DNA of 64,000 bases. Origin: Balamuthia mandrillaris (taxonomy: Eukaryota; Discosea; Longamoebia; Balamuthiidae). Made by a program: the position numbers and the translations under genes. Below the pieces are notes generated by a model that made no database searches, was not told the DNA's origin, and saw only the letters and a list, made by a program, of their open reading frames with translations. The DNA lies in the NCBI GenBank assembly GCA_031835245.1, contig JAVKOQ010000268.1, positions 1-64,000 of the forward strand, read 5' to 3'. Positions 40,695 to 50,900 of this stretch are shown here, piece by piece; within the stretch, counting starts at the first letter, position 1; each line of letters begins with the position of its first letter.

Positions 40695-42240
40695 ATGATG
40701 TCGTGGAGAGGAGGTGGTTGCAGGCCGGCGTTGTGGACGTTCCTCGTGATGGGGAGCAAAGGAGGAGGAGCTGTTGGCCCTGTTCAGCAGTCCTCCTGTC
40801 TCCTCGCACGGGCACCTTCTACATGTGGTACCTCTCTTCTCGTTTGTTTGTATCTTTTTGTTTTGCCTTCGCCACCTGCTCATCTTTTCTGAATCTTATT
40901 AGCTCGAAGGATCGCTCTCCACTCCTGGCAAGTCTCGCGTTCGGTGCGGCAAATGCATGCCTCCTCTTCGCTTTTGTTCTCCTCTGCCGAAGGAACTACG
41001 CGCCCAGCCTCACGTGAAGCACACGATCCCTCCACGCGAAGACGAAGACGTGGCAAAGGCGTTGTCCTCAGCAGGACAGAAAAGAAAGAGCTCTACTCCA
41101 CGCCACGAAGCCACAGCAGCAGCAACAAGGGAGCATCCCTAAAGCAACAAGAAAGAGAAGAAGAAGAAGAAGAAGAAGAAGTAGCAGAAGACAAAGAAGA
41201 GCACAACAAAGAGGACAACAAGGACGACGACGAAACCAAAGAATTGATCTCCTTGTGGCAAGAATACGCTCGTCACAAAGAGAAATGGCCGCTCATCTTC
41301 TCTTACCTCCAAGGCCTCCAAACAGAAATGGAGAGAGCAGAGAGAAGAGGGCCAGTTGAGGGAGAAGAGGACAACAAGCGACCCGGGAAGCAAAGGAAGA
41401 GACCGCTGCCACCCACCTTTCTTGTGAACCTGGTGCTGCAACAAATGGTGGGCAGGAAGAACGACCTCAGGGCAGGAGTGGAGCTGGTGAAGCTGGCCAA
41501 AGCGTGCGGCGTGCCGCTCTCCGCGGCCACCTTTAGTTTGTTGATAAGCGCCTATGGAAAGGCCGGCCAGATGGGTGCCATACAGAGGGCATTGCAGGTC
41601 ATGGAGGAAGAGGGTGTGCCGCTCAACGCTTTTGTTTACAGGTTGCTTTCTTCTTTCTCCTTTTTCCTCCTTCTTTGCCTTCTTCCTTTGTTTTTCTTCT
41701 GTCCTCTGTCCCCTTTCTCCTTCCGCTTTGCTTCTTACATAGATGCGTGTCAGTGCCTTGATATCAGCATACGCGCATGCAAAAGATAGCGAGGCCGCCG
41801 CTCGATATTTTGTGGAGATGAAGCAACAGGGCATGAGGCCGGACGTGGTGACGTACTCCGCCCTCCTGAACGCCTTTATTGAGGGGCAACAGTTGGGCCA
41901 GGCCGAGTCTCTCCTCTACGACATGAAAGCAGAAGCAGAAAAGACTGACGACGACACTAACGACACCAACCAAAAGAAGAAGAAGAAGAAGCAGAAGACG
42001 TTTAGGTTCGATGCTCATGTCTATTCGTTGATGCGAAAGTTGGTGGCGCGGCTACGCCTGGAAGGAGAGGAAGAACGAGCCAACGACTTGATCGTGGACT
42101 TTGATATTCGCGAGCGAAGCAACAACACGACCCCTTCCTCAGGCGAGGAAGAAGCACAAGAACAACAAGAACAAGGAGATGAACAAGAACAGCAAGAACA
42201 AGAGGAAACAGGAGAAAGCGAGAACGAAAAAAGAGAGTAA
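40695..42240 (+). CDS. Pentatricopeptide repeat (PPR) protein, probably mitochondrial
   Basis: PPR proteins bind organelle RNA. Exons 40695-40827, 40903-41641 and 41754-42240 join in frame to 452 residues. The N-terminus is basic, with few acids and many Ser and Arg (RRIALHSWQVSRSVRQMHAS), a mitochondrial targeting type. A Glu/Asp-rich linker follows, then three to four PPR units: FLVNLVLQQMVGRKNDLRAG, TFSLLISAYGKAGQMGAIQR, VYSALISAYAHAKDSEAAAR, VTYSALLNAFIEGQQLGQAE. The tail is Gln/Glu-rich. The third-exon acceptor is at GTGTCAG/TGCC rather than the nearer ACATAG, which would give a stop after five codons. The stop is only 21 bp from that of the convergent gene. Confidence 0.9.
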
Positions 42241-42261: not shown

Positions 42262-44337
42262 TTAGCAACAATGCTCTTCGTTCTTTTCTTTTTCTTTCGC
42301 TCTGCGCTGCTCGCAAGGCGAGTCGTTGTTTGCTTTCGAACAACACTCAGGCTCTCTGAAGATATCTTCTATGTGAATGAGTTTGTGTTGGCCATCCTCC
42401 GTGAAGCAGGTGCAGGTGCTATAGGGCGGCGCATAGAGGTGCAACGTTATGCTTGTTCCATCGTGCTCGTTTACCATGCGATGCGCCAATGTCCCTTTTT
42501 CAAAAGATCAGCAACGCAACGCAACGCAAAGCAACGCAAGAAGGCATAAAAATAAAAGCAAAAAAGAAAGAAGATACCATCCAGGCTAGAAGACTCATCC
42601 ACATCCAAGACCTTATTTCCAAGCCTCAATATCTTGGCTCTGTTCGGCCAGACCGAGTACTGCGTCTCCAACATTCTTCCTTGCAACACCTTGAGCCACA
42701 CGCTGGAGCCAGAGTGGTCGTGGATGGGGCTCTGCTGGCCCTTCTCCCAGCAGGCCATCACCAGGGAGAAGCGCTTGTCCTGTGCCACCAGCACCCTCGT
42801 GTAGTGTTGCTTGTTGAAGCGGGCGTATGCTTGATACTCCCTGTTTGTATTAACGTTTCCAAAACCACAAACAATCAAACAGAGAGAGAGAGAGAAAAGA
42901 CCAGAAGCAAAAAGAGAAGAAAAAAACATACTGAGGATGAAACTGGAAGGAATCAACAAGCTTCCAAATCTTGGTGGCATCGGCCTCATGCGCAAACTCC
43001 GTGCGGAGGACAGACACAAACTGCTGAAAGTTAGAGAATACCATCTTTCTGAACTGCAAACAACGCGGCGAAGGCAAAAACATTTGCTTCGTCTTATTTT
43101 CTCCTCCTTCTTCCGTTAACTTTCTCGAACGTCTTTTAGTTTCTTTGGGCTCTTCTTTCTTGTCACTCTCTTGTGCCACAGCAACATCAATCAAAGGAAT
43201 GTCCACTGCCCCTTCCTCTCCTCCTTTCTTTTGCTCTTCGTCAACTACTTCTTTCGTTGAGGTGTTGTTTTTGGAGCAGTAAATAACGGGAACGACTTTG
43301 GATTGCCCGGATTGCTCGTCCTTGAAGCAACATTCGATGTAAGGGGGGAAGTAACAGTGGAGGGAGATTGCCTTCTCCGTGGCGCTCGCATTCCTCAGCT
43401 GATGATACTTGAGGGAGTCAGCCTCTTGCAGGACGCCATCCTCGGAAGTGATGCGGCGTTTAGCGGTAATTTCTTGCTCGCCTTCATTGGTAGAGTATTC
43501 CAGGATGTCCAACTCGCCTTCCAAGACGCGATACCATACTTTACGAGGAACGGTCTTGCCTTCAGGTGCGTGGTTGTGAACAGGCCTGTTTTGTAAACAA
43601 AGAAAGACATACTTTAAGTAATCGAAGGAGAGCAAACATAGAAGAAACCTACGTTCCCTGGCCGCCATTCCAACATATCAACACTAAGGAGAAGTGTTCG
43701 TTGAAGGCAACGAGAACTCGTTGGTAGCGATGCTCCGAGAAGTGAACGTACTCTTTCCATTCTCTAATTAAAAAGAAGATTTAAAAAGAGAATCAGAAAA
43801 AAAGTTGAGAAAAGAAACTACGAACGCTGGCTCGAAACAAAGGTTTCCAAGTAAGTATTCAATGACAGAACCATGGAGGTGACTATCTGTAAGTTAGAAG
43901 ATGATTCAACGTTAGACTACAAGGTTACACCTCCCGTAAAATATGCTAGCCTTTTACACACCTCCAACTTCATTGCAAAGTTTGTCAACCAGAGTAGAAA
44001 GGTTGGGAACTGGATTGCGCACGTTGGGTAGAGGATGCTAATTTCAGAAAAATAAGCAACAGGAGAGTCTTAATGAGAGCTTGAAAGCGAAGAAAGAACT
44101 AACCTCGACCAAAGGTCTCTGCGAGGCATATGCCTGGGTGATAGTGACAGTCCTTTTGTCGCCCGTCTCTTTGTCGAAGCAAAAGCATTTGGCATAAGGC
44201 GGAGAGTATATGTGCAGCGAGATGCAAACTTCATCCGTTCGTGCGTTACCCATTTTGTGGACTCCTTGCGAATCTGTAAATACGCAACAACAAATGAGAA
44301 TGGAATGGACAAAAGGAGACATGGAGCGAGAATGCAT

Positions 44338-44416
<79 letters not shown>

Positions 44417-45733
44417 GGGAGGAGGGAGAGGTTACTGTCAATGTAAGCAACAGAATCGGTGGGCATGGGAGTTACTTTGAGGACGTCCACCTTACTGCCA
44501 AATCCATTCTCATTAACGCGATAACGGACTTCTTCCATGTCGCCTTGTAAGACCTTCATCCAACAACTGGCTGTAGCATGATCGTGGATCGGGCTGAAAC
44601 CAAATACAAACAGGAAACGTCAACAAATGGGACGAATAATGGAACAAGAGAACAGAGCACAAACCTTGCTTGGCCTTTCTCCCAACAAAGCAACAAGAGA
44701 GTAAACTTTTCATCGTAGCCAACTAAGTTACGAGTGTAGTGGCCATCTTTGAAGTGAGCATATTGTTTGATCTCTCTGCGATTTTCGGTGAGTACAGTAG
44801 AAAAAAGAAGAAAAAAAAGAGAGCAACTGACTTTGGGTTAAAACGAAGAGAGGCCAAAAGACGACTGATGCGATTGATTGTAGCTGTAGTGCGATCTGAA
44901 GAAGTCTCATTCTTCAGCTCATGACGAAGCAAATCAACCAAAGAGTCAAAAGACGTGTATACTACGTTTTGTTGATGAGCCAATTGTGCCTTCAATCGAC
45001 ATTTGCCCTTAACAAAGACAAGAAAAGTAAGCAGATATGAAAAAAAAAGTGAATGCTCGTTATATTACCTCCAAACCAGCAACGGGACGATAAACTACTG
45101 GAATGGTGCCTTGCCGCCCACCAGAGGCGTTAAAGCAGCACTCAAAGTATGGAGGAGAGTAGAGATGCACAGAAACTGCTCTAGTTTTCCCTGAGTTTCC
45201 CATCTTGTGCTTTACCATTGACTCTGTTTTTGTTATGTCATAAATAGAGAGAGAGAGAGAGAGAGAGAGTAGCAAACAGAGATAAGCAAAAGAAAGGATG
45301 AAAGAAGAGTCGAAGAAACAGATACCATCGAAGAAAAGAACGGGGCTCTGGTCGTTATACTTAGAAACATCCAGCACTTCAGAGTACTGTGTGTTTGGGC
45401 AGTAGCACTTGTACTTGGTGAGCGTCAGTTCTCCATCCAATACTTTGACCCAGCTCCTCTCTCCCGTGGCGTGATCATGCACTGGTCTGTTTGAGGGAAA
45501 GACAGAGGGGAGAAGATTCAGCAAGATGAGCGAGAATAATAACAAACGCTATTATAAAGGGCTCACGTTTCTTGGTCTTGGTTCCAACAAATGACCATCA
45601 AAGAAAAGTTATCGTCGAAAGCTATCAAGTTACGGCTGTAGCAGTGCTCGTCAAAGTGCATGTAGTCCTTCCACTCACTAGTAAAACAAGCCAAATGTCA
45701 GAAATGAGCAGCTAAGAGAAGAGAACGACGATT

Positions 45734-45775
<42 letters not shown>

Positions 45776-46196
45776 ACAAACAAAACGAGAGTGGTGAAGA
45801 AAAACGACAAGCGAGAGAAAGCATAGGAGAAAGGAGAGCGAAAGCTTCAAAGACAACGCACTTCAAGGAGAACTGGAAAGACTGCATGAGGTGCAACACA
45901 TGGCTGGGCGACGGTTCTCCTTTCTCAAACGCTCTGGTCATGGTCCGGACGAAGGAGATCACATTGCAAAAGGTCTCACCGCTCTCTCCTTCCTCTTTTT
46001 CTCCGTCAGTGCTTCCTACTCCTTCTCCCGCCAACTCTTGCGCTCGTCGGATGGTTCGAGGACTCTCCACAAAGGAGAGAGTTCGTTCTCGCTCCTCCTC
46101 CTCGTCCTCTTCTTCTGCCTTCCGCCCTCCTCTCCTCCTGTTGTTCTCCTGTTGAACTTTCTTCTCTCCTCTACTTCCAAGCAGCAACTTTTTCAT
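42262..46196 (-). CDS. Protein with four tandem cysteine-dioxygenase-like domains
   Basis: Cysteine dioxygenase (CDO) is a cupin that oxidises Cys to cysteine sulfinate with Fe(II). Here four copies lie in one multi-exon reading frame, with no start or promoter between them. Order: N-terminal charged part (from MKKLLLGSR), domain 1 (about 46010-45065), domain 2 (44995-44100), domain 3 (about 44040-43250), domain 4 (43070-42262). Each has the YxRxL(V/I) Arg, the first two iron His as HDH or HNH (VHDHATGERS, PIHDHATASC, VHNHAPEG, PIHDHSGSSV), the third His (VKHKMGN, GVHKMGN, LKYHQLR, LAHRMVN) and the S/T-x-H-x-Y outer-shell motif (VSVHLYSPPY, ISLHIYSPPY, ISLHCYFPPY, ITLHLYAPPY). Only domain 2 keeps the Cys five residues after HDH that cross-links to Tyr in animal CDO. 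All four look able to bind iron. Starts other than 46196 are possible. The stop is 21 bp from the PPR gene stop. Confidence 0.85.
44346..44432. repeat. (GA)n(GAAA)n(GA)n intronic microsatellite
   Basis: Inside an intron of domain 2 of the CDO-repeat gene. Similar (GA)n runs are at 42879-42896, 45249-45269 and 45738-45771, all CT on the sense strand. Confidence 0.95.
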
Positions 46197-47934: not shown

Positions 47935-50900
47935 TCATTCAAAGGCCGCCTTGTAGACATCAGCAAAATAGTCGGCAAAGTGAACGGTGAGGCCTGCTCT
48001 CAAAAAGTCGTCCAGCTCGTCCCAATCCTTCTTGTTTTCTTTGGGAATGACGAGCTCCGTCACTTGGTTGCGCTTCGCTGCGATGACCTTTTCCTTTATG
48101 CCTCCCACGGGAAGCACTTTGCCTGTTTTTGTTTTGTGACATTAGTTTAGCGACAAAAGAAGAAAGGAGAAAGCATAAAGAAGAAGAATTAAGCATGAAG
48201 ATATAAAAGAGAGAGCAAAGAACGAAGCAAAAGGAATGACAAACGAATAGGAAAGATAACGGAAAGAAAAAGAAGAAGAAACTCATCATACCAGTGAGAG
48301 TGATTTCGCCCGTCATGGCGAGGTTTTGCTTAATGGGAACGCCCTTAGCAAGAGAGAGCAAGGAAGCTACCATTGTGATACCAGCCGAGGGTCCGTCCTT
48401 GGGAGTAGCTCCTTCCGGCAGATGCATGTGCATGTGTGCCTTCTCGAAAAAGTCGTTATGTGCATCGAGCTTCCTCATGAAGAGCTTGGCGTAGGTATAA
48501 GCAATGTTGGCGCTTTCCTTCATGACCTCTCCCATTGAACCTGTCGTCACCAATTTGCCCTGTCCAGATGCTGCGAATGCAAGTCAGAGAAGTAAAACGG
48601 GAAAGAACAAGAGAATGGCACTAGGAGAGAGAGCAAACCATGTTTCTTGCCCTTTTTGTTTTTCTTATGGGAAGCTTCGACAAGTGACATGTGATGAGCG
48701 TCCAACACAGTCTCTACGTAGGGCGTGGATCCTCCCATGGAAGTCCACGCCAGGCCCATGACCACGCCTGGCGGGGTCACGTCGTAGATGCGTTGGTCTG
48801 TCCATGGTGCTTTGCCCAAATAACCTTCTAGGTCGCTCTCTTTGACCACCATCTTTTCTTTCTTTTGCTGTAGTTTTGTCGCTGCTTTGTGTTTGGTCGG
48901 TCTTTCTTGTCGTCGTTGTTCTTTAACAGTTCCAACTGATTTTTCTCCTTCTTGACGCGATGCTGTCTCTTCTTCCGCTTCTTCATTCTTTGAAGGTCCA
49001 GTTACTGTTGTTTCGGTATCTTTCTTCTCATTTTGAGTAACCAGCTTGTACGCTACTTTACGAAAGACCTTCTCGATGTGTTTCTGAAGGTTTCTAACTC
49101 CTGCTTCACGACAGTACGATTGAATCAACGCATTCACCGCCTCTCTATTCATTTCTACCTCCACTCCAACTTCTTCTTCTTCCTCTTCATCTGTCCCTTC
49201 TTTCTTGGTCTTCTTCAGAATTTTGGCAGTGGAAAGTCCACTCTCTTCAATAGCTTTCGGAATGAGATACTTCTCAGCAATTGCCACTTTCTCTTCCTGC
49301 ACATATCCGCTCAGCCGAATGACTTCCATTCGATCCAGCAACGGCTTAGGTATGGTGTGGGTCACATTCGCCGTACAGACAAACAACACTTTAGAAAGGT
49401 CGTAGGACACATCCAAGTAATGATCCAAGAAAGCGTTGTTCTGCTCTGGATCCAAAACCTCCAAAAGGGCCGAGGCGGGGTCTCCTCGGTGTGTAGCCAT
49501 ACCTATCTTGTCAATCTCGTCTATCAAAATAACGGGGTTGGAAGTCTTGACTCTCTTGAGAGCTTGTAGCAATTTGCCAGGCATGGCTCCCACATAGGTC
49601 CTTCTGTGGCCTTTGATCTCGGCTTCGTCGGTCATGCCACCAACGGAGAAGCGGAAGAACTCTCTTCCAAGAGCGTGTGCCACCGATTTGCCTATGCTGG
49701 TCTTACCAACACCTGGTGGTCCCACCAACAACAAAATCTTTCCTGAATGTTGTTGCTGATTGTTGCTGTTACTATTCGTCGCTGAGCTCATCGATGAACG
49801 AAGACTGCCTACTGCGATGAACTCCAACAAACGATCCTTCACATCCTTCAAGCCATGATGTTCCTCTTCCAACACTCTCTCCGCGTGGCTCATGCTGAGA
49901 TTGTCCGTGGTGTGCTTGCCCCAAGGTAACAACGTCAACCAATCTAAATAGGTCCGCATGACGTTGTACTCAGCACTAGCCGGTGCGACGTGTTGGAAGC
50001 GTTCCAGCTCCTCGTCGATAGCACGAAGAGCGTGAGCAGGAATGTTGGGATTAGCAGCCTTCCTCTCCTGGAACTTGGCAAGCAAGGTCTCCGTTTGTGG
50101 TTGTTCCAGGCCAAGTTCCGTGCGAATGCTCTTCAGCTCCACTTTGAGTAACATTTGTCTTTGCCGTTCCTCCAGCTTTTGGTCGATTTCCCTCTTTATC
50201 TTGTGTGAGAGCTCCACAAGGTTCATCTCCCGTTTGGCCATACTCGCCACTTTCATCAAGCGTCGATGCACATCCAACTCCTGAATCAAGTCCTGCTGGT
50301 CATTCACTCCAGTTGTTCCCTCTGCGCCTCCTCCATCAGTGATAGAAAAATGAGTGATGATGCCGCCCACAAAGTCAGCAAACTCTCCTGGATTCTGAGG
50401 GGTAAAACTCCAAGAACTGGACGAGATAAGCGAACATGTGCTCGTAGCGCCGGTTCATGGTGGTGGTAGTCAGTCGATGCACAATGGCTTCCAACTCCGT
50501 TTGAGCAGCACGCAAAGCAGCAGCCTTGTCGCGATCACCGTTCATGGTTGGTAGAGGCAGAGGCTTGTCCGGGAGGTCCTTCACCGCAACAGTTAGACGT
50601 CTGTTCTTCCGTTTCTTCTTGTCGGAGCGAACCACATCCTTTATTCCGATACGACGCATGCCAGAGAAGTAGACCAGACCGGCGGGGCCGGCTAGAGTTT
50701 CTTGGAGAACAACTTTGGTAACAACCGCTAAAACTCCAGCAGAGTGAATGTTGTCGATAGAGTCTATGCTTGGAAGGAACGCGTTGCGGTCGTGGTTGTT
50801 GTCGTTGTTGGCAGGAGTGGAGGAAGAAGCAGGAGTTTGGGCCTCGGAGGGATTTTTGATCAGGAAGAGGCCGATGAGAGGATAGGGATGTTTCTTGCGG

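What the first reader, a model, noticed from the sequence alone, without database searches (positions are those of the whole stretch)
42262..46196. Four consecutive cysteine-dioxygenase-like domains in one polypeptide
Seen: exons on the minus strand read continuously through four copies of the CDO motif set (Arg in YxRxL, HDH/HNH, a third His, S/T-x-H-x-Y), with linkers but no new start between copies. Known: cysteine dioxygenases are normally single-domain enzymes of about 200 residues. Inference: a tetrameric-in-chain enzyme or a set of diverged cupins (only domain 2 has the cross-linking Cys, domain 4 has Thr for Ser) that may act on different thiols or serve as an oxygen or cysteine sensor. 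I do not know of a described tetra-CDO.
Basis: partly seen in the sequence, partly recalled or inferred. Interest (0 to 1): 0.85.

Follow-up and report, generated by a model that had tools for sequence, protein, structure and literature searches.

The report
Four cysteine dioxygenases in one protein
An amoeba gene really does encode one protein made of four linked copies of the enzyme cysteine dioxygenase, and similar three- and four-copy proteins turn up in distant single-celled eukaryotes, usually with one textbook copy and the rest altered.

Summary
Confirmed. On the minus strand, 46196-42262, 14 exons joined by 13 GT-AG introns give an unbroken 924-residue frame identical to the deposited Balamuthia mandrillaris 'Cysteine dioxygenase'. 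Each of the four copies passes the PF05995 cut-off alone. A second haplotype keeps frame and splice signals, dN/dS 0.081. Introns sit at identical sites in the copies, so an intron-bearing module was duplicated.

It is not unique: of 94 proteins examined (this one included), 35 read A-2-A-4 and 40 read 2-A-4; named ones include stramenopiles, chlorarachniophytes and Polarella. The core copy (D2 here) keeps all ten checked residues in 71 of 85; the other places in 0 of 37, 3 of 82 and 0 of 54.

Best reading: one real L-cysteine dioxygenase (D2) carried with three diverged sister cupins, mainly accessory; in Balamuthia these keep iron- and cysteine-binding residues, so activity is not excluded. 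The oxygen-sensor idea is weak: all copies keep S/T-H-Y, which ADO/PCO lack, and separate ADO/PCO-type loci exist. New variant of a known kind; ten paper searches listed no description.

The parts
42262..46196 (-). Whole gene, start codon to stop codon: 14 exons, 13 GT-AG introns of 56-184 bases, 924 residues
   Evidence: identical to P0001; second haplotype keeps all junctions
45975..46196 (-). N-terminal tail, residues 1-74, charged, predicted disordered
45090..45974 (-). Copy D1, residues 75-247 (with introns 1-3 inside): HDH, third His, SVHLY; Ser at the Cys93 place
   Evidence: PF05995 91.3 bits alone; residues
44128..44962 (-). Copy D2, residues 270-451 (introns 5-7 inside): canonical core with HDH and Cys93
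   Evidence: PF05995 110.6 bits alone; best PDB sequence match mammalian CDO1, E 1.1e-30; residues
43279..44013 (-). Copy D3, residues 468-644 (introns 9-11 inside): HNH with a longer loop, Val at the Cys93 place
   Evidence: PF05995 75.2 bits alone; residues
43042..43278 (-). Charged linker between D3 and D4, residues 645-723, mostly predicted disordered (648-711)
42358..43041 (-). Copy D4, residues 724-893 (introns 12-13 inside): HDH, TLHLY, Val at the Cys93 place
   Evidence: PF05995 95.7 bits alone; PF07847 33.0 bits; residues
42265..42357 (-). C-terminal tail, residues 894-924, predicted disordered from 897

Best explanation
One gene makes one chain of four CDO-type cupins. Shown here: the continuous frame, the four copies, origin by duplication of an intron-bearing module, purifying selection on the frame between two haplotypes, and a conserved family order with one canonical copy. 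Inferred: D2 oxidises free L-cysteine to cysteine sulfinate with O2 at a three-His iron site with a Cys-Tyr cross-link, as mammalian CDO does. D1, D3 and D4 are diverged sister copies that pack with it in the same chain and act mainly as accessory parts (stability, or tuning by bound iron or cysteine), much as pseudo-subunits do. In Balamuthia they still carry the iron and cysteine-binding residues and may bind iron or cysteine or turn over slowly. Because the genome also has a single-copy CDO, the four-copy protein is probably a specialised cysteine dioxygenase, not the only one.
For: Frame and copies. dN/dS 0.081 between haplotypes, with 0-3 amino-acid differences per copy. Shared intron sites: 12 coincident pairs, at most 4 in 200,000 random placements. 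Family order A-2-A-4 in 35 and 2-A-4 in 40 of 94 proteins. All ten checked residues in 71 of 85 core copies against 0 of 37, 3 of 82 and 0 of 54; core median identity 44.6% against 32.1, 34.6 and 28.2%. In the Polarella-like group the accessory copies have lost iron ligands. AlphaFold2 pTM 0.79 suggests a defined arrangement of the copies. Separate single-copy CDO.
Against: In Balamuthia all four copies keep three His, Tyr58, Arg60 and S/T-H-Y, and three His are kept in 35 of 37 D1-place, 67 of 82 D3-place and 47 of 54 D4-place copies, so iron sites are far from gone in most members. Lack of Cys93 need not stop catalysis: a Cys93Ser change costs two- to five-fold in one review (PMC4019311), though at least an order of magnitude in another paper (PMC8503633), and many bacterial CDOs lack it. 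Some cores are not fully canonical either: 14 of 85, among them the chlorarachniophyte type with H-C-H. No measured activity; no coordinates to check packing.
Confidence: 0.6

Rival explanations
1. Four working thiol dioxygenases on one chain, with D1, D3 and D4 retuned to other thiols or other cysteine concentrations, giving a wide working range.
For: All four Balamuthia copies keep three His, Tyr58, Arg60 and S/T-H-Y; the Cys93 link only boosts activity; few or no amino-acid changes in each copy between haplotypes.
Against: Across the family Asp87 and Cys93 are lost in most D1- and D3-place copies, Tyr58 in most scored D4-place copies (17 of 54 keep it), and iron ligands themselves in the Polarella-like group.
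Confidence: 0.27
2. Plain dosage: four copies in one chain simply give more of one enzyme or hold it together as an internal oligomer, with no division of labour.
For: Tandem copies of one family in one chain; pTM 0.79.
Against: The copies are only 31-39% identical, and each place in the order has its own conservation pattern across 94 proteins.
Confidence: 0.07
3. An oxygen or protein-N-terminus sensor of the ADO/PCO type.
For: PF07847 passes its cut-off on the whole protein and on D4 alone (72.7 and 33.0 bits).
Against: PF05995 scores higher in every copy; S/T-H-Y, missing in ADO/PCO, is present in all four; separate strong PF07847 loci on C209 and C675.
Confidence: 0.03
4. Four separate genes wrongly joined by the splice model.
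For: No RNA reads for this locus were available to me.
Against: No stop or frame break over 13 junctions; the second haplotype keeps all of them; the same order in 35 of 94 proteins, including EukProt and MMETSP transcripts.
Confidence: 0.03

Closest known systems
Mammalian cysteine dioxygenase type 1 (CDO1, PF05995; PDB 2b5h, 2ic1, 6n42)
   Different: CDO1 chains in the PDB have about 200 residues and one copy; here four copies in 924 residues, three of them without Cys93.
Bacterial Arg- and Gln-type CDO homologues and 3-mercaptopropionate dioxygenases (PDB 4qma, 6xb9, 4qm9)
   Different: All four Balamuthia copies have Arg at position 60, so none is of the Gln type (type names recalled; also in the reference list seen).
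ADO/PCO thiol dioxygenases (PF07847)
   Same: Three-His iron cupins; PF07847 passes on the whole protein and on D4.
   Different: PF05995 scores higher in every copy; S-H-Y present but missing in ADO/PCO.
Deposited multi-copy proteins named 'cysteine dioxygenase' (Hondaea P0075, Polarella P0071, stramenopile A0A7S3PMW2 P0073)
   Same: Same family, core plus diverged copies in order.
   Different: Pfam recognises only two CDO_I stretches in P0071 and P0075; the other copies are degenerate.

Membership tests
Cysteine dioxygenase type I (PF05995), each copy | PF05995 score over the curated cut-off | tested here: met
   91.3, 110.6, 75.2, 95.7 bits; cut-off 23
Cysteine dioxygenase type I (PF05995), each copy | Three-His iron site and S/T-H-Y with Arg60 | tested here: met
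   All four copies
Eukaryotic (cross-linked) CDO | Cys93 able to pair with Tyr157 | tested here: inconclusive
   By sequence present in D2; Ser in D1, Val in D3 and D4. The link itself was not tested
Cysteine dioxygenase | Makes cysteine sulfinate from L-cysteine and O2 | not testable with these tools
   Needs an assay
Cysteine dioxygenase | Single domain of about 200 residues | tested here: not met
   924 residues, four copies. A size habit of the described enzymes, not of the Pfam family
ADO/PCO (PF07847) | S-H-Y motif replaced (His by Asp, Ser and Tyr by hydrophobic residues) | tested here: not met
   S/T-H-Y in all four copies; definition from PMC8503633 passage
Multi-copy CDO family described here | Canonical core followed by an A-type and a 4-type copy, often preceded by an A-type copy | tested here: met
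   A-2-A-4 for P0001; 35 A-2-A-4 and 40 2-A-4 of 94; profiles were built from the 30 proteins, so the sorting of those is partly circular

The most novel reading that the evidence does not exclude
An ancient eukaryotic cysteine dioxygenase built as a hetero-assembly in one chain, in which the diverged cupins sense cysteine, iron or oxygen and allosterically gate the single canonical core.
Probability: 0.2. Interest if true: 0.75.

Novelty: new variant of a known kind. Interest (0 to 1): 0.52.

Why it matters
Cysteine dioxygenase is the textbook entry to cysteine breakdown and is treated as a small single-copy enzyme. A family of three- and four-copy versions in an amoebozoan, stramenopiles, chlorarachniophytes and a dinoflagellate, with one copy held to the textbook active site and the others altered, is a natural experiment in how an iron enzyme is turned into its own accessory parts. 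It suggests that some protists control cysteine disposal in a way not seen in the animal and bacterial enzymes, and the idea can be tested directly by expressing the copies together and apart.

Tried and rejected
Fusion of neighbouring genes by a wrong splice model: rejected. ADO/PCO membership: rejected, although PF07847 passes its cut-off on D4. Thr in copy 4 as a mark of decay: rejected, 15 of 93 core copies have Thr. A clean doubling of a two-copy ancestor (ABAB): suggested by the order, but the careful tree puts D4 with D1+D3 (98/86) and leaves D2 outside them, D1 and D3 intermix, and none of 200 bootstrap trees makes D1 or D3 one group; the order of duplications is left open. Long branches and few outgroups (5, not one side of a branch) make the root unsure. 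The search with D2 alone returned 8 proteins at E 1e-15 among 114 candidates, too few to rank single-copy relatives. NCBIfam gave a cupin model (WbuC) below its cut-off for P0001 (30 of 42 bits) but over it for P0003 (46.6); I take this as general cupin likeness. The VIA-align rows span mainly 261-519 and 725-893, so D1 and D3 were barely tested there; the D2 match is drawn on to about residue 518, inside D3, which I did not follow up.

Papers: ten searches gave listings, several of them 10-20 rows out of hundreds or thousands of papers; no listed title or abstract start tells of a multi-copy CDO. Five papers were opened, passages only: PMC4019311, PMC8503633, PMC11279195, PMC10598087, PMC6416184; the passages seen in the last three mention cysteine dioxygenase without any multi-copy form.

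Full report
What is there. The minus strand from 46196 to 42262 reads as 14 exons separated by 13 introns of 56-184 bases, all beginning GT and ending AG, with the frame kept at every junction. The product has 924 residues and is letter for letter the database protein P0001, which a source (NCBI) names 'Cysteine dioxygenase [Balamuthia mandrillaris]'. That points to the organism of the window, an amoebozoan, and shows that the annotation already exists; whether it rests on RNA evidence I could not see.

Four copies. Pfam CDO_I (PF05995) finds four stretches in the protein (E 3e-106), and each copy given alone passes the cut-off of 23 bits: 91.3, 110.6, 75.2 and 95.7. PF07847 (ADO/PCO) also passes on the whole protein (72.7, cut-off 27) and on D4 alone (33.0), but lower than PF05995 in every copy. 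The copies are 31-39% identical to each other and 28-36% to the mammalian CDO1 segment. Tyr58, Arg60, the H-x-H pair, the third His and S/T-x-H-x-Y are present in all four; only D2 has Cys93; D3 has HNH and a longer loop after it (rat numbering).

One gene, not chance. The genome assembly holds the same gene on two other contigs, C268 and C87, identical to each other over 5308 bases and about 91% identical to the window over the gene and its flanks, so most likely the other haplotype. Mapped through an alignment, that haplotype keeps all 13 introns with GT and AG ends and an open frame of 926 residues; two in-frame codons are added, 14 residues differ, and dN/dS is 0.081 overall (NG86), and 0.026, 0.07, 0.165 and 0 in D1 to D4. 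The per-copy values rest on 0 to 3 amino-acid differences each.

Origin by duplication at the DNA level. Mapped on the alignment of the copies, introns sit at the same site and phase: column 46 phase 2 in all four, column 84 phase 2 in D1-D3, column 145 phase 1 in D1, D2 and D4. That makes 12 coincident pairs; 200,000 random placements of the same numbers of introns never gave more than 4. The module that was copied already held these introns.

Relatives. A search with the whole protein found 29 others at E up to 1e-3, and a profile search 92 in all, this protein included; in both only about 8,000 best-sharing candidates were scored. I examined 94 proteins, the union of the two searches. Sorted with profiles of the copy classes, 35 read A-2-A-4 (A = like D1 or D3), 40 read 2-A-4, and 19 are shorter, fragmentary or odd, among them three 4-2-A-4 and one A-2-A-4-4. 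Some of the 35 have a cut-off first or last copy (for example P0009, P0021, P0022), and some 2-A-4 proteins may lack the first copy through truncation; 33 of the 40 have 600 residues or more. The profiles were built from the 30 proteins, so the sorting of these is partly circular. Pfam finds four stretches in P0003 and P0008 and three in P0050, but only two in Polarella P0071, Hondaea P0075 and Aplanochytrium P0070, where the other copies are degenerate.

Who has it. Names shown: Balamuthia (Amoebozoa); Hondaea and Aplanochytrium (stramenopiles) and A0A7S3PMW2 (listed under Sar, its suffix 9STRA read from recall as a stramenopile); Amorphochlora and a chlorarachniophyte transcriptome listed under taxid 91329 (Rhizaria); Polarella (a dinoflagellate, recalled). 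P0003, P0004, P0008, P0010 and P0011 are EukProt or MMETSP transcript ORFs with four copies; their 'complete' labels are cut off in the listing.

Which copy works. Ten positions were scored (58, 60, 86, 87, 88, 93, 140, 153, 155, 157) in copies whose seven core columns were filled. All ten are canonical in 71 of 85 core copies, in 0 of 37 D1-place, 3 of 82 D3-place and 0 of 54 D4-place copies; three His in 85 of 85, 35 of 37, 67 of 82 and 47 of 54. Near-identical sequences were not thinned, loop insertions make position 93 uncertain in many A copies, and 26 of 80 D4-place copies were not scored. The core is not perfect everywhere: 78 of 93 have Asp87 and 86 of 93 Cys93, with gaps in 4 each. 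Median identity within the 35 A-2-A-4 proteins is 44.6% for the core against 32.1, 34.6 and 28.2% for copies 1, 3 and 4. In the Polarella-like group (P0028, P0029, P0030, P0060, P0065, P0066, P0071) the second copy reads H-T-V or H-T-I and the last has lost its H-x-H. So the core is held to the canonical enzyme while the rest drift, in some lineages past iron binding.

Tree. In the careful tree of 71 rows D1 and D3 form one group (100/99), D4 another (97/78), and these join (98/86); D2 copies lie outside them in a part of the tree that also holds the mammalian CDO1. D1 and D3 intermix, so exchanges or repeated duplications are possible; the order is not resolved.

Other thiol dioxygenases in the genome. 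A single-copy CDO, open over its CDO domain without introns, lies on contig C14 near 192.3-192.9 kb; it keeps HDH with Cys93 and scores 96.7 bits with PF05995. Two strong PF07847 loci lie on C209 and C675 (139.3 and 138.6 bits); the D4 exon of this gene also appears in that search, at 27.3 bits. The four-copy protein is therefore not the only CDO, and not the obvious candidate for an N-terminal cysteine oxidase.

How it most likely works. From papers: CDO turns cysteine into cysteine sulfinate; a Cys93Ser change lowers activity two- and five-fold in rat and human CDO, and many bacterial CDOs lack this cysteine (PMC4019311, passages); another paper puts the loss on blocking the cross-link at an order of magnitude or more, and says that ADO and PCO lack S-H-Y (PMC8503633, passages). 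From these and the tallies, D2 is very probably a working L-cysteine dioxygenase. That D1, D3 and D4 are in the main accessory is an inference from the family pattern; in Balamuthia itself they could still turn over a thiol.

Known or new. The protein and some relatives are in databases under 'cysteine dioxygenase'. Ten searches of the open paper library, including Balamuthia mandrillaris with cysteine dioxygenase (0 papers) and 'CDO domain' with cysteine dioxygenase (0 papers), listed no description of a multi-copy CDO; most subscription papers are outside that library. I call it a new variant of a known kind.

Noticed in passing
L011:1793-2422 (G000 contig C14, about 192.3-192.9 kb): A separate single-copy CDO without introns over its domain, with HDH and Cys93; in the careful tree it sits on a long branch with three outgroup single-copy CDOs.
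   Followed up: partly
L009 and L010 (contigs C268 and C87): Two contigs identical over 5308 bases, both about 91% identical to the window locus: the other haplotype, assembled twice, or a third copy.
   Followed up: partly
G000 contigs C209:19568-20065 and C675:13354-13872 (L012, L013): Two strong ADO/PCO-type (PF07847) loci, perhaps two haplotypes of one gene.
   Followed up: no
window 41743-42240, + strand: A pentatricopeptide-repeat (PPR) reading frame whose stop lies 21 bases from the stop of the CDO gene, tail to tail.
   Followed up: partly
window about 47935-48583, - strand: Exons of a Lon protease C-terminal domain (PF05362) upstream of the CDO gene.
   Followed up: partly
window introns 1, 3 and 7 (near 45.75, 45.26 and 44.38 kb): CT-rich simple repeats inside the introns.
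   Followed up: no
P0023, P0024, P0030, P0050, P0071 (N-termini): Several three-copy relatives begin with an Arg-rich stretch that looks like an organelle-targeting peptide; by eye only.
   Followed up: no
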